NCBI RefSeq assembly: GCF_965363235.1
Contig: NC_134839.1
Coordinates: 114,322,517-114,386,516, forward strand
Reading direction: 5' to 3'
Origin: Mytilus galloprovincialis
Taxonomy: Eukaryota > Mollusca > Bivalvia > Mytilida > Mytilidae
DNA: 64,000 bases
Shown: positions 6,043-46,831 of the stretch, piece by piece
How positions within the stretch are numbered: position 1 is the first letter of the stretch
How the letters are laid out: every line of letters begins with the position of its first letter
The notes under the pieces: model-generated
What the model saw: the letters and a program-made list of their open reading frames with translations, nothing else
What the model was told of the DNA's origin: nothing
Databases searched by the model: none
Translations under genes and position numbers: made by a program

Positions 6043-6197
6043 CATTACCTGGTGCACTGGTAATTAAAACATTTAGAAACAGTGAATACATTACCTGGTG
6101 TACTGGCAATTAGTACATTTAGAAACAGTGAATACATTACCTGGTGTACTGGTAATTAGTACATTTAGAAACAGTAAATACATTACCTGGTGTACTG
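6043..6197 (-). repeat. 46-bp minisatellite spanning the integrin exon 2 donor
   Basis: Four copies of a 46-bp unit are present. On the minus strand each unit holds CAGTACACCAG followed by GTAATG and 29 further intron bases. The copy at 6187-6197 is the true end of the coding exon, and its donor AG|GT recurs with exon ends at 6141, 6095 and 6049. The unit is therefore the last 11 exon bases plus the first 35 intron bases. The array is cut on its far side by the 4452-6038 element; a stub of a further unit lies at 4438-4451. Confidence 0.85.
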
Positions 6198-6323
6198 ATG
6201 GGTAGCTGAGTACACTGTGGGACAGTGGATCCTTTAAAGTCGACAGGACATCTATACACGACTCCAGGAGAAACGAGGTTAGATGCACTGGTCAAATTAT
6301 CTTTAGGGGCGCCAATTACCATC
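6187..6323 (-). CDS. Integrin alpha subunit, exon 2 (partial gene)
   Basis: This 137-bp internal exon enters in phase 2 and leaves in phase 1. Joined to exon 1 (9595-9731) it reads ...HDN-WMVIGAPKDNL, then a PGVVYRCPVD block and C-T-Q-L. This matches the first blade of integrin alpha beta-propellers (the W-x-x-x-G-A-P motif followed by G-x-V-Y-x-C). The protein is a type I membrane receptor subunit that pairs with integrin beta for matrix binding. The acceptor is the AG at 6324-6325, and the donor AG|GTAATG lies inside a minisatellite. The subtype cannot be told from about 90 residues. Later exons lie beyond the left edge or in sequence not recognised. Confidence 0.88.
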
Positions 6324-6413
6324 CTTCGACGAAAAAAATATGCTATGTTACATGTTCATTCATTATTATTGTTTTGTTTTTAATGCATTTAAATAATTGC
6401 ACATGTTACTTTT

Positions 6414-6612
6414 AATCTTTGGATCGCGTGTATACAAAGTACTCACAAGGTATTCTGACTGGAAGATATGACGTTGGTTACATTAAGGGGTATTTGACGT
6501 TGTAGGTTATTTTTTCTTTGGATCGCGTGTATACAAAGTACTCACAGGGTATTCTGGCTGGAAGATATGACGTTGGTTACATTGAGGGGTATTTGGCGTT
6601 GTAGGTTATTTT
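6414..6612. repeat. Tandem duplication, 2 x about 98 bp, in integrin intron 1
   Basis: The segment starting ctttggatcgcgtgtataca and running to 'gttgtaggttattttt' occurs twice in direct succession with few differences. On the minus strand each copy holds a donor-like GTGAGTAC. No coding exon was recognised in it. Confidence 0.8.
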
Positions 6613-6839
6613 TTTCTGTTATGTCTTTTGTCTTTTCTCAATGTTGTTATTCGACTTTAAAGTGCTGTGACGGAAAAGGAAATAAAATCGAATTTTGAAG
6701 GAGTTCAATTTCAGTTCATATTACACGGCTTAACATTTAGTCATAGAACAAGAGAGTACACGCTGAAATGTCTCGCCTTCTATACTAATCATTGATATTA
6801 TGTTGAGAATCCTCAGTATCAAGCTAAGCTTTATTACAA

Positions 6840-43100: not shown

Positions 43101-43273
43101 AGATTCAGCATATCAAAGAACCTCATGAATTAAATTTTACGAAATCAAATCAAGTTGAATTTGGACCCTTTGGACTTCAATGTGGACTTATTTTATCATG
43201 AGACCCACAATCAGAATACCTGGTACATGGTTAGATTTGGCATATCAAATACTTGTATGGTTATTAGACATAC
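40181..43273 (-). other. Secernin intron 2
   Basis: A 3.1-kb intron with an element copy at 40260-41575, a fragment of the 'gaccctttggacttcaatg' repeat at about 43090-43255, and a 'gatgtggtatgattgtcaata'-type repeat near 42945. Plus-strand frames at 42105-42464 and 42529-42741 start without ATG and are not supported. Confidence 0.75.
40260..41575 (+). mobile_element. Non-autonomous element, copy 3 (1.3 kb, diverged)
   Basis: It begins ccagatgctccacagggc and ends tttgcagtcgtataga. It is clearly related to 26203-28403 but older: the end repeat is tttatactaacgca rather than tttatacgaccgca, most internal units are lost, and about 250 bp (40700-40960) has no counterpart. Confidence 0.8.
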
Positions 43274-43461
43274 CTTACTATATCCATTCCAAGCAGCCTT
43301 TCTGTCAAATCATCATCACTATTTAACTTAGTCCACACTGCCTCATTTCCAATACAGACCCCATGTTGATTGGCTCCCATCTCTGCCCCCCACATCCAAG
43401 CAGGTTTACTGAGGATTACATCATTTGTCTTTGGTACTTGGTCTATCTCAATGTATGTACA
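43274..43461 (-). CDS. SCRN: Secernin, exon 2
   Basis: The 188-bp exon (phase 0 in, phase 2 out) encodes [40 protein letters not shown] and [10 protein letters not shown]. The W-G-A-E-M-G-x-N-x-x-G-V-x-I-x-N-E-A block is the most conserved part of the secernin/dipeptidase C69 fold. The acceptor is TTTCTAG|TGTACA and the donor AG|GTATGT. Its phase fixes the exon 1 donor at ATG|GTAGGT. Confidence 0.95.
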
Positions 43462-44590
43462 CTAGAAACACAGGGAAAATATCAGTATAAACATTGTATA
43501 TAGCTTAATAAAAATATGGAGATGTGATATAATTGTCAATGTGACAGCATGTGTACATGCGTATTCCTAAAGACTAAAAAAGCAATTGAAAAGATGCGAG
43601 CATCTACAGGTCACCATCATGACCATAAACCCTTTAAAAATTAGAAAAAACAATATCTTATAATTCTGTTAGCTACAATCTATAAAAGTCCTAGATATGA
43701 TAAAGTGTGATTGATAAAAACTTTTATAATGCAGCAAAGAATGAGAAAATTATAGCAGACATCAAAGACAAAATTTGGATAACACATTCAGCTGGTTTTG
43801 GACAGACACTGTCACACTTAAGATGAAGATTGTTGCATGGTCTAATTATGTCTGTGCGTGCTCAACCCCTCCTCTTATCTGGAACAATGGTGTAGCAACA
43901 CATCATAAGAACACAGCTTAATTCATTTGGAAAGTTATTGACTCATCGGATTGGTACTAAGCACAAAATATAAAAGACGTCGCTCACCTTGGTCTATGTG
44001 AATATTAAACAAAGGACACAGATGGATTCATGACAAAATTGTGTTTTGGTGATGGTGATGTGTTTGTAGATCTTGCTTACTAAACATACTTGCTGCTTGC
44101 AATTATCTCTTTCTATAATGAACTTGGCCCATTAGTTTCAGTGGAAAATGTCAGTGAAAATTTACAAATTTTATGAAAATTGTTAAAAATTGACTATAAA
44201 GGGCAATAACTCCTTAGGGGGTCAATTGACCATTTTGGTCATGTTGACTTATTTTTAGGTCTTACTTTGCTATACATTATTGCTGTTTACAGTTTATCTC
44301 TTTCTATGATAATATTCAAGATAATAACAAAAAACGGCAAAATTTCCTTAAAATTACCAATTCAGGGGCAGCAATCTAACAACCGGTTATCCGATTCATC
44401 ATTGTAATGATGTAAAGATTTTTGTAAAAGTCAATGACGACGGACGACGACGGAAGACAAGTGATGAGAAAAGATCACTTGGCCCTTTGGGCCAGGTGAG
44501 CTAAAAAGACATGGAGTATCAACTCTACTCACAGTTACTGCTATCTTTAAGTTCAAAACAATCAATACAATTCAAATTACAGAATTGTCT
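43462..44590 (-). other. Secernin intron 1, proximal part with a dispersed repeat
   Basis: Contains a 'gatgtgatataattgtcaatg' repeat fragment near 43518. From about 43985 to 44505 there is an intact relative of the repeat that is split at 33036-35650, ending gacgacggacgacgacgg and 'ggccctttgggccaggtgagc'. Confidence 0.75.
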
Positions 44591-44594
44591 CAGT

Positions 44595-46831
44595 ATTCTT
44601 AATACCTACCGTAACTTAAGCTCCTTGTTGGTGTTCCTAACTAGGACTATTCACAATACATTAGTGTCTCAGTATTCTTAATACCTACTTTAGATCCTTG
44701 TTGGTGTTCCTGACTAGGACATTTCACATTACATTAGTGTCTCCCTACCATAACTTTAGATCCTGGCTGGTGTTCCTTACTAGGACAATTCACATTACAT
44801 TAGTGTCTCAGTATTCTTAATACCTACCATAACTTTAGATCCTGGCTGGTGTTCCTTACTAGGGTAATATTCTTTATACCTACCATAACTTTAGATCCTG
44901 GCTGGTGTTCCTTACTAGGGTAATATTCTCTATACCTACCATAACTTTAGATCCTGGCTGGTGTTCCTTACTAGGGTAATATTCTCTATACCTACCATAA
45001 CTTTAGATCCTGGCTGGTGTTCCTTACTAGGGTAATATTCTTAATACCTACCATAACTTTAGATCCTGGCTGGTGTTCCTTACTAGGATAATATTCTTTA
45101 TACCTACCATAACTTTAGATCCTGGCTGGTGTTCCTTACTAGGGTAATATTCTCTATACCTACCATGACTTTAGATCCTGGCTGGTGTTCCTTACTAGGG
45201 TAATATTCTTTATACCTACCATAACTTTAGATCCTGGCTGGTGTTCCTTACTAGGGTAATATTCTCTATACCTACTATAACTTTAGATCCTGGCTGGTGT
45301 TCCTTACTAGGGTAATATTCTTAATACCTACCATAACTTTAGATCCTGGCTGGTGTTTCTTACTAGGGTAATATTCTCTATACCTACCATAACTTTAGAT
45401 CCTGGCTGGTGTTCCTTACTAGGGTAATATTCTCTATACTTACCATAACTTTAGATCCTGGCTGGTGTTCCTTACTAGGGTAATATTCTCTATACCTACC
45501 ATAACTTTAGATCCTGGCTGGTGTTTCTTACTAGGGTAATATTCTTAATACCTACCATAACTTTAGATCCTGGCTGGTGTTCCTTACTAGGGTAATATTC
45601 TTAATACCTACCATAACTTTAGATCCTGGCTGGTGTTCCTTACAAGGGTGATATTCTCTATACCTACCATAACTTTAGATCCTGGCTGGTGTTCCTTACT
45701 AGGGTAATATTCTTTATACCTACCATAACTTTAGATCCTGGCTGGTGTTCCTTACTAGGGTGATATTCTCTATACCTACCATAACTTTAGATCCTGGCTG
45801 GTGTTCCTTACTAGGGTAATATTCTTTATACCTACCATAACTTTAGATCCTGGCTGGTGTTCCTTACTAGGGTAATATTCTTTATACCTACCATAACTTT
45901 AGATCCTGGCTGGTGTTCCTTACTAGGGTAATATTCTCTATACCTACCATAACTTTAGATCCTGGCTGGTGTTCCTTACTAGGGTGATATTCTTTATACC
46001 TACCATAACTTTAGATCCTGGCTGGTGTTCCTTACTAGGGTAATATTCTCTATACCTACCATAACTTTAGATCCTGGCTGGTGTTCCTTACTAGGTAATA
46101 TTCTCTATACCTACCATAACTTTAGATCCTGGCTGGTGTTCCTTACTAGGGTAATATTCTCTATACCTACCATAACTTTAGATCCTGGCTGGTGTTCCGT
46201 ACTAGGGTAATATTCTTTATACCTACCATAACTTTAGATCCTGGCTGGTGTTCCTTACTAGGGTAATATTCTTTATACCTACCATAACTTTAGATCCTGG
46301 CTGGTGTTCCTTACTAGGGTAATATTCTCTATACCTACCATAACTTTAGATCCTGGCTGGTGTTCCTTACTAGGGTGATATTCTTTATACCTACCATAAC
46401 TTTAGATCCTGGCTGGTGTTCCTTACTAGGGTGATATTCTTTATACCTACCATAACTTTAGATCCTGGCTGGTGTTCCTTACTAGGGTAATATTCTCTAT
46501 ACCTACCATAACTTTAGATCCTGGCTGGTGTTCCTTACTAGGGTAATATTCTCTATACCTACCATAACTTTAGATCCTGGCTGGTGTTCCTTTCTAGGGT
46601 AATATTCTCTATACCTACCATAACTTTAGATCCTGGCTGGTGTTCCGTACTAGGGTAATATTCTTTATACCTACCATAACTTTAGATCCTGGCTGGTGTT
46701 CCTTACTAGGGTAATATTCTTTATACCTACCATAACTTTAGATCCTGGCTGGTGTTCCTTACTAGGGTAATATTCTCTATACCTACCATAACTTTAGATC
46801 CTGGCTGGTGTTCCTTACTAGGGTAATATTC
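44595..46831 (-). repeat. 56-bp minisatellite copying the secernin exon 1 donor, 35+ units
   Basis: On the minus strand the unit is the last 45 bases of coding exon 1 (codons [15 protein letters not shown]) followed by 11 intron bases beginning GTAGGTATA. From about 44870 to 46831 the period is a strict 56 bp (gatcctgg at 44894, 44950 and so on); three or four diverged longer units precede it (44595-44870). The exon itself is the outermost unit. Nearly all units keep the donor. Reading on from the exon without splicing meets a stop 18 codons later. Confidence 0.95.

What the first reader, a model, noticed from the sequence alone, without database searches (positions are those of the whole stretch)
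6043..46831. General pattern: tandem arrays seeded on exon-intron boundaries
Of about 17 splice junctions recognised in the window, four are covered by four unrelated minisatellites (units 41, 46, 56 and 45 bp), with the junction as part or edge of the unit. Tandem duplication of AG|GT segments is a proposed route of intron gain (established idea), and here the intermediate state seems common. Possible causes (inference): R-loops or stalled forks at splice sites, DNA made from splicing intermediates, or relaxed cost of duplication because the first donor wins. This could be a genome-wide process in this lineage.
Basis: inference. Interest (0 to 1): 0.88.

Follow-up and report, generated by a model that had tools for sequence, protein, structure and literature searches.

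The report
Splice-junction-spanning minisatellites in mussel genes
In this mussel genome, short DNA segments straddling the edge of an exon have been copied many times into the neighbouring intron, a repeat type described before in amphioxus that is probably harmless because only the splice site next to the exon gives an intact reading frame.

Summary
The window is Mytilus galloprovincialis. Three of the four arrays (41, 46, 56 bp) span a splice donor: each unit is exon end plus intron start. The fourth (45 bp) is intronic and stops just short of the acceptor. This is the "mirage" repeat already described in amphioxus. It lengthens existing introns; I found no sign of intron gain. For secernin, 1 of 36 donor copies, the first, leaves an open frame, equal to the database protein.

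Whether junctions attract arrays depends on the null. By coverage there is no excess in the window (5.4 of 16 junctions expected by circular shift) or at 262 junctions of dynein and myosin exons. But expansion inserts copies, so starting units should be counted. In the sample 3 arrays span an exon edge found blind, against 1.7 expected (P 0.25); with two more at myosin exons that I recognised through their arrays, 5 against 1.8 (P 0.026; 0.07 dropping a paralogous case). Genome-wide, arrays carrying AGGTAAGT are 1.8-fold (per Mb, P 0.12) to 3.2-fold (per motif occurrence, P 0.004) commoner than arrays with the reversed motif. Spanning arrays recur in this genome; a hotspot at donors is possible, not shown.

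The parts
6040..6197 (-). 46-bp array, 3.4 copies, spanning the donor of integrin-alpha-like exon 2 (11 exon + 35 intron nt per unit)
6187..6323 (-). integrin-alpha-like exon 2, CGAAG|GATGG ... CACCAG|GTAATG
   Evidence: (integrin alpha-4, E 2.8e-11, exons 1 and 2 together)
9473..9630 (-). 41-bp array, 3.9 copies, spanning the donor of integrin-alpha-like exon 1 (35 exon + 6 intron nt)
9595..9760 (-). integrin-alpha-like first coding exon (putative signal peptide), donor AATTG|GTAAGT; 5' limit not determined
19616..19930 (-). 45-bp array, 7 copies, intronic, abutting the acceptor of secernin exon 5B without covering it
19094..19614 (-). secernin alternative last exon 5B
20144..20350 (-). secernin alternative exon 4B
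44812..46831 (-). 56-bp array, 36 donor copies, spanning the donor of secernin exon 1 (42 exon + 14 intron nt)
44567..44827 (-). degenerate intron-distal continuation of the 56-bp array (period 66, 78% matches)
46787..46959 (-). secernin first coding exon, donor AAAGTTATG|GTAGGTAT at 46787|46786
37212..43461 (-). secernin exons 2, 3, 4A, 5A (43461-43274, 40180-39981, 38713-38507, 37702-37212), no array at any of their 7 splice junctions

Best explanation
Short local tandem duplications included the last bases of an exon and the first bases of its intron, then expanded as ordinary minisatellites. The gene keeps its full exon and its first donor; the further copies lie in the intron and are spliced out. 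They are tolerated because the exon-proximal donor is transcribed first and is the only productive one. Shown here: anatomy, a single productive donor in the frames I could test, recurrence in other genes. Inferred: the duplication mechanism (slippage or microhomology), neutrality, use of the first donor in RNA.
For: Unit structure. Of 36 secernin donor copies only the first gives the 414-aa frame, identical to P0001. Integrin e1 donors 2-4 run into a stop at codon 46; e2 donors 3-4 run into a stop and donor 2 adds 46 nt, a frameshift. The exon/intron split varies (42/14, 35/6, 11/35; about 53/7, 47/46, 33/14 and one acceptor case, read by eye), so breakpoints are not fixed on the splice site. 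The 56- and 41-bp arrays show short exon-intron similarity at their edges (GAATA; TATTTCGGATA/TATTTGGATAA), although a partial last copy would look the same. Five spanning arrays in other genes. Spanning arrays are 7 at donors and 1 at an acceptor (two-sided p 0.07; 6 of 7, p 0.125, if the paralogous myosin pair counts once), the direction expected if upstream acceptor copies are harmful and downstream donor copies are not.
Against: No RNA data were available, so use of the first donor is inferred from frame and from a predicted protein. Integrin exon 3 was not found in the window, so e2 was tested only for read-through. The donor bias is not significant. The motif excess leaves room for a process that favours donors.
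Confidence: 0.75

Rival explanations
1. Donor-proximal DNA is a real duplication hotspot in this lineage (R-loops, stalled forks or another transcription-linked process), so junction-spanning arrays arise several times more often than intronic ones.
For: Sample: 5 of 22 arrays span a junction against 1.8 expected, P 0.026. Genome-wide AGGTAAGT triples: 14 arrays in 159 Mb against 10 in 201 Mb for the reversed motif; per motif occurrence ratio 3.2, P 0.004, or 0.015 counting three 57-bp arrays as one. AGGTGAGT triples 400 against 93 matches for its reverse, not normalised, 87 or more from one array.
Against: Two of the 5 sample cases sit at exons recognised through the arrays; with exons found by profile alone it is 3 against 1.74, P 0.25. 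Dropping the paralogous myosin array gives 0.07, allowing for unseen exons 0.09-0.19. Coverage at 262 junctions is lower than inside introns. Per megabase the motif ratio is 1.8, P 0.12. One normalised control motif, possibly inflated by dispersed repeats. Acceptor motif 231 against 172, not normalised.
Confidence: 0.25
2. The arrays are intermediates of intron gain by tandem duplication of AG|GT segments.
For: The model and single cases exist (PMC4974935 introduction; PMC3087553 passages). A Mytilus californianus predicted isoform (P0005) carries [15 protein letters not shown] after a different N-terminus, perhaps a unit used as part of another exon, perhaps a prediction artefact.
Against: Secernin protein is unchanged and all copies lie in one pre-existing intron. 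Two of three window donors lack AG|GT. No new intron position was found.
Confidence: 0.07
3. DNA copied from splicing intermediates or pre-mRNA was inserted back next to the gene.
For: None beyond position at junctions.
Against: The exon-side edges of the three window arrays lie 11 to 45 nt inside the exon and units contain both exon and intron. The same holds by eye for the five sample arrays.
Confidence: 0.02
4. No preference for junctions: tandem duplications fall at random, some span a boundary, and this window was picked for having several.
For: Arrays cover 33.4% of the window; circular shift P(>=3) = 0.91. No peak at 262 junctions. Blind event count in the sample P 0.25.
Against: Expansion adds copies and does not overwrite exons, so coverage is a poor measure; per starting unit 0.65 expected and 3 seen in the window, and the motif count leans the same way.
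Confidence: 0.5

Closest known systems
'Mirage' minisatellites of amphioxus (Adh3; globins BflGb6 and BflGb9), PMC3087553
   Different: Found here in a bivalve; up to 36 copies; length polymorphism and somatic instability, reported there, not tested here.
[quoted passage not shown] potato RdRp case, PMC4974935)
   Same: A tandem duplication that can cross an exon-intron boundary.
   Different: No new intron found here; the old intron only grows, and two of three window junctions are not AG|GT.
Variable internal tandem repeats at exon-intron boundaries in human segmental duplications, PMC2812944
   Same: Minisatellites at exon-intron boundaries of genes (passages).
   Different: Those are reported to alter coding sequence or splicing; here the copies appear silent.

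Membership tests
Mirage minisatellites | tandem repeat unit spanning an exon-intron boundary | tested here: met
   Three window arrays, five in the sample; the 45-bp array fails
Mirage minisatellites | both 5' and 3' boundaries can be involved | tested here: met
   Seven donor arrays and one acceptor array, C10:33477300-33477585
Mirage minisatellites | regular splicing not disturbed | tested here: inconclusive
   Database protein P0001 equals first-donor model; no RNA data
Mirage minisatellites | length polymorphism, somatic instability | not testable with these tools
   One assembly only
Intron gain by AG|GT tandem duplication | duplicated segment carries AG|GT | tested here: not met
   CAG|GT in the 46-bp array only; TTG|GT and ATG|GT in the other two
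Intron gain by AG|GT tandem duplication | a new intron at a new position | tested here: not met
   Secernin only: all copies inside intron 1; protein continuous at that site in P0001, P0002 and P0006. Not tested for integrin

The most novel reading that the evidence does not exclude
In Mytilus, DNA around splice donors is a duplication hotspot, several-fold above intron interior, and the selection filter 'first donor wins' lets the resulting arrays persist at donors but not at acceptors, so a sizeable number of introns carry copies of their own upstream exon end.
Probability: 0.25. Interest if true: 0.75.

Novelty: new member of a known kind. Interest (0 to 1): 0.45.

Why it matters
In the papers I saw, junction-spanning minisatellites are described for a few amphioxus genes and for recent human duplicates. 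Finding them recurrently in a well-assembled bivalve genome, with up to 36 near-identical donors at one exon, gives natural test cases for how the spliceosome picks the first of many donors, and makes the hotspot question answerable by one annotated whole-genome count.

Tried and rejected
Rejected: the 45-bp unit as a diverged copy of exon 5B (p = 0.56). Rejected: plain coverage as the decisive null, because array growth inserts DNA; both results are reported. An attempt to annotate more exons in the sample by ORF similarity between stretches was noisy and its output was cut; not used, except that it shows the myosin '...LIY' exon in s8, s86 and s88. The 30 kinase loci were fetched but not used in the junction test, as most are tandem gene copies. 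Of 195 listed exon matches (102 dynein; 93 myosin), 143 lay in fetched stretches (102 dynein, 41 myosin); 52 myosin matches were not examined. Fifty-seven of the 143 matches hold stop codons, probably where a match runs into intron. The junction profile uses the 143 profile-found exons; one search adds four myosin exons, two of them noticed through their arrays, and repeats the test without these four. Of 46 repeat-finder rows in the sample, 28 have units of 20 bp or more; I merged these to 22 arrays by hand, and shorter units (among them one 18-bp array in s8 inside a match that spans an intron) were left out. Crossing status was assigned by me; s27, s42 and s49 touch or come near a junction and were counted as not crossing; s80a's donor (GTTGGT) is weak. 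With a lower repeat-finder threshold the intron side of acceptors (10-59 bases in) is somewhat richer in arrays (6-7%) than most farther bins; I have no explanation. The acceptor motif and AGGTGAGT could not be normalised because the single-motif searches did not complete. The GATAGTGA control did not complete and was given up. Pooled window-plus-sample P values (0.004-0.010) are not relied on, since the window was selected for the pattern.

Full report
Where it is. The window is G000:C2:114322517-114386516. The secernin model spliced from it is identical over 414 aa to 'secernin-2-like isoform X2 [Mytilus galloprovincialis]' (P0001), on a contig of 115,872,679 bases, the length of C2. So the finding concerns the Mediterranean mussel.

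Genes. On the minus strand lie an integrin-alpha-like gene (exons 1 and 2; best match integrin alpha-4, E 2.8e-11) and, as I read it, one secernin gene with exons 1, 2, 3 and two alternative last pairs, 4A/5A and 4B/5B; P0001 matches pair A, the M. edulis protein P0002 matches pair B (96% and 100%), and no second copy of exons 1-3 was found. A coiled-coil gene has an exon starting at 62225 on the plus strand. I count 16 supported junctions.

The four arrays. The 56-bp unit is 42 exon bases ([14 protein letters not shown]) and 14 intron bases, 36 donor copies. The 41-bp unit is 35 + 6, and the 46-bp unit 11 + 35. The 45-bp array lies in the intron, ends one base short of the acceptor's G, and does not resemble the exon. 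The far end of the 56-bp array (44567-44827) is degenerate (78% matches against 97%).

Function of the copies. Splicing from secernin donor 1 gives the 414-aa frame; 0 of the other 35 donors do. Integrin e1 donors 2-4 meet a stop; e2 donors 3-4 meet a stop, and donor 2 shifts the frame. The copies are therefore best read as intron.

Is it more than chance? Arrays cover 21,356 of 64,000 bases. By circular shift 5.4 junctions should be covered, P(>=3) = 0.91. This null ignores that expansion inserts DNA. Counting each of 25 arrays once by its starting unit, 0.65 are expected to span and 3 do, P 0.025, in a window that was picked for this.

Independent sample. I took all 102 listed dynein (DHC_N2) exon matches and 41 of 93 myosin-head matches, 92 stretches, 147,841 bases. 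Array coverage (unit 9 bp or more, score 50) is 0.9% in the last 10 exon bases, 1.7% in the first 10 intron bases and 1.5-3.3% farther in; 3 of 262 refined junctions lie inside an array. There is no peak at the junction. At a lower score threshold the pattern at the junction is the same, with a rise to 6-7% at 10-59 bases inside acceptors. Reading the arrays I found 5 that span a junction: dynein C10:33477300 (acceptor, 78 bp), dynein C6:93569262 (donor, 93 bp), myosin C9:57311201 (donor, 47 bp, 77% matches), and myosins C10:38843698 (60 bp x 15) and C9:74050543 (60 bp x 2). The last two sit at an exon that the profile search had missed and that I recognised through the arrays; they share unit edges at the same donor of paralogous genes, so they may be one event, and two other paralogues lack the array. 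With profile-found exons only, 3 of 22 arrays span against 1.74 expected, P 0.25. With these exons added, 5 against 1.8, P 0.026; one paralogue dropped 0.073; with 1.5 times more junctions 0.09 and 0.19. Restricting to units of 40 bp or more gives P 0.002-0.03 but was chosen after seeing the data.

Genome-wide motif test. Three AGGTAAGT with 22-52-base gaps: 697 matches against 439 for the reversed motif. Single occurrences: 39,604 against 72,798. Only the first 100 places are listed; they hold 14 arrays in 159 Mb and 10 in 201 Mb. Per occurrence the ratio is 3.2, P 0.004, or 0.015 if three 57-bp arrays are one family; per megabase 1.8, P 0.12. AGGTGAGT: 400 against 93, 87 of the 100 listed from one array, not normalised. 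TTTTCAGG: 231 against 172, not normalised. The test does not show that the motif copies are real donors.

Mechanism. The array edges in exons lie 11 to 45 nt from the splice site in the window, so splicing-intermediate DNA is unlikely. Short exon-intron similarity at the edges of the 56- and 41-bp arrays fits slippage or microhomology but could be a partial last copy. The 7:1 ratio of donors (p 0.07; 6:1, p 0.125) has the direction expected of a filter: downstream donor copies are harmless, upstream acceptor copies compete with the true one. This is inference.

Literature. [quoted passage not shown] PMC4974935 (abstract and introduction) and PMC2812944 (passages) are related. The 2002 Adh paper and the 2007 paper on human introns from tandem arrays were seen only as references (not held). 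Searches listed no title or abstract start reporting such arrays in a bivalve; most listed papers were not opened.

Verdict. The anatomy is real for three of four arrays, of a known kind, and recurrent in this genome. The claim of a seeding process at junctions is open and weakly supported; the claim of intron-gain intermediates is not supported.

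Noticed in passing
window 19094-20350 and 37212-38713: Secernin appears to carry two alternative pairs of last exons (4A/5A, 4B/5B), 55-64% identical at protein level; P0001 (M. galloprovincialis) matches A, P0002 (M. edulis) matches B.
   Followed up: partly
G000:C10:38843698-38844596 and G000:C9:74050543-74050662: Two paralogous myosin genes carry a 60-bp array (15 and 2 copies) at the same donor with the same unit edges; two further paralogues lack it.
   Followed up: partly
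window 26761-28295 and 33792-35165: Arrays of 35-bp and 161-bp units occur twice in the same order about 7 kb apart, suggesting a dispersed element or segmental copy.
   Followed up: no
window 12113-17410: A 67-bp array of 79 copies, 5.3 kb, 96% matches, between the integrin and secernin exons; not at a recognised junction.
   Followed up: no
P0005 (Mytilus californianus predicted isoform): Its N-terminus joins a different start to [15 protein letters not shown], the peptide of the 56-bp unit; possibly a unit used as part of another exon, or a prediction artefact.
   Followed up: no
G000:C1:132579674-132585502: A 56-bp-spaced array with AGGTGAGT in most copies (87 triple matches listed, list cut there).
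   Followed up: no
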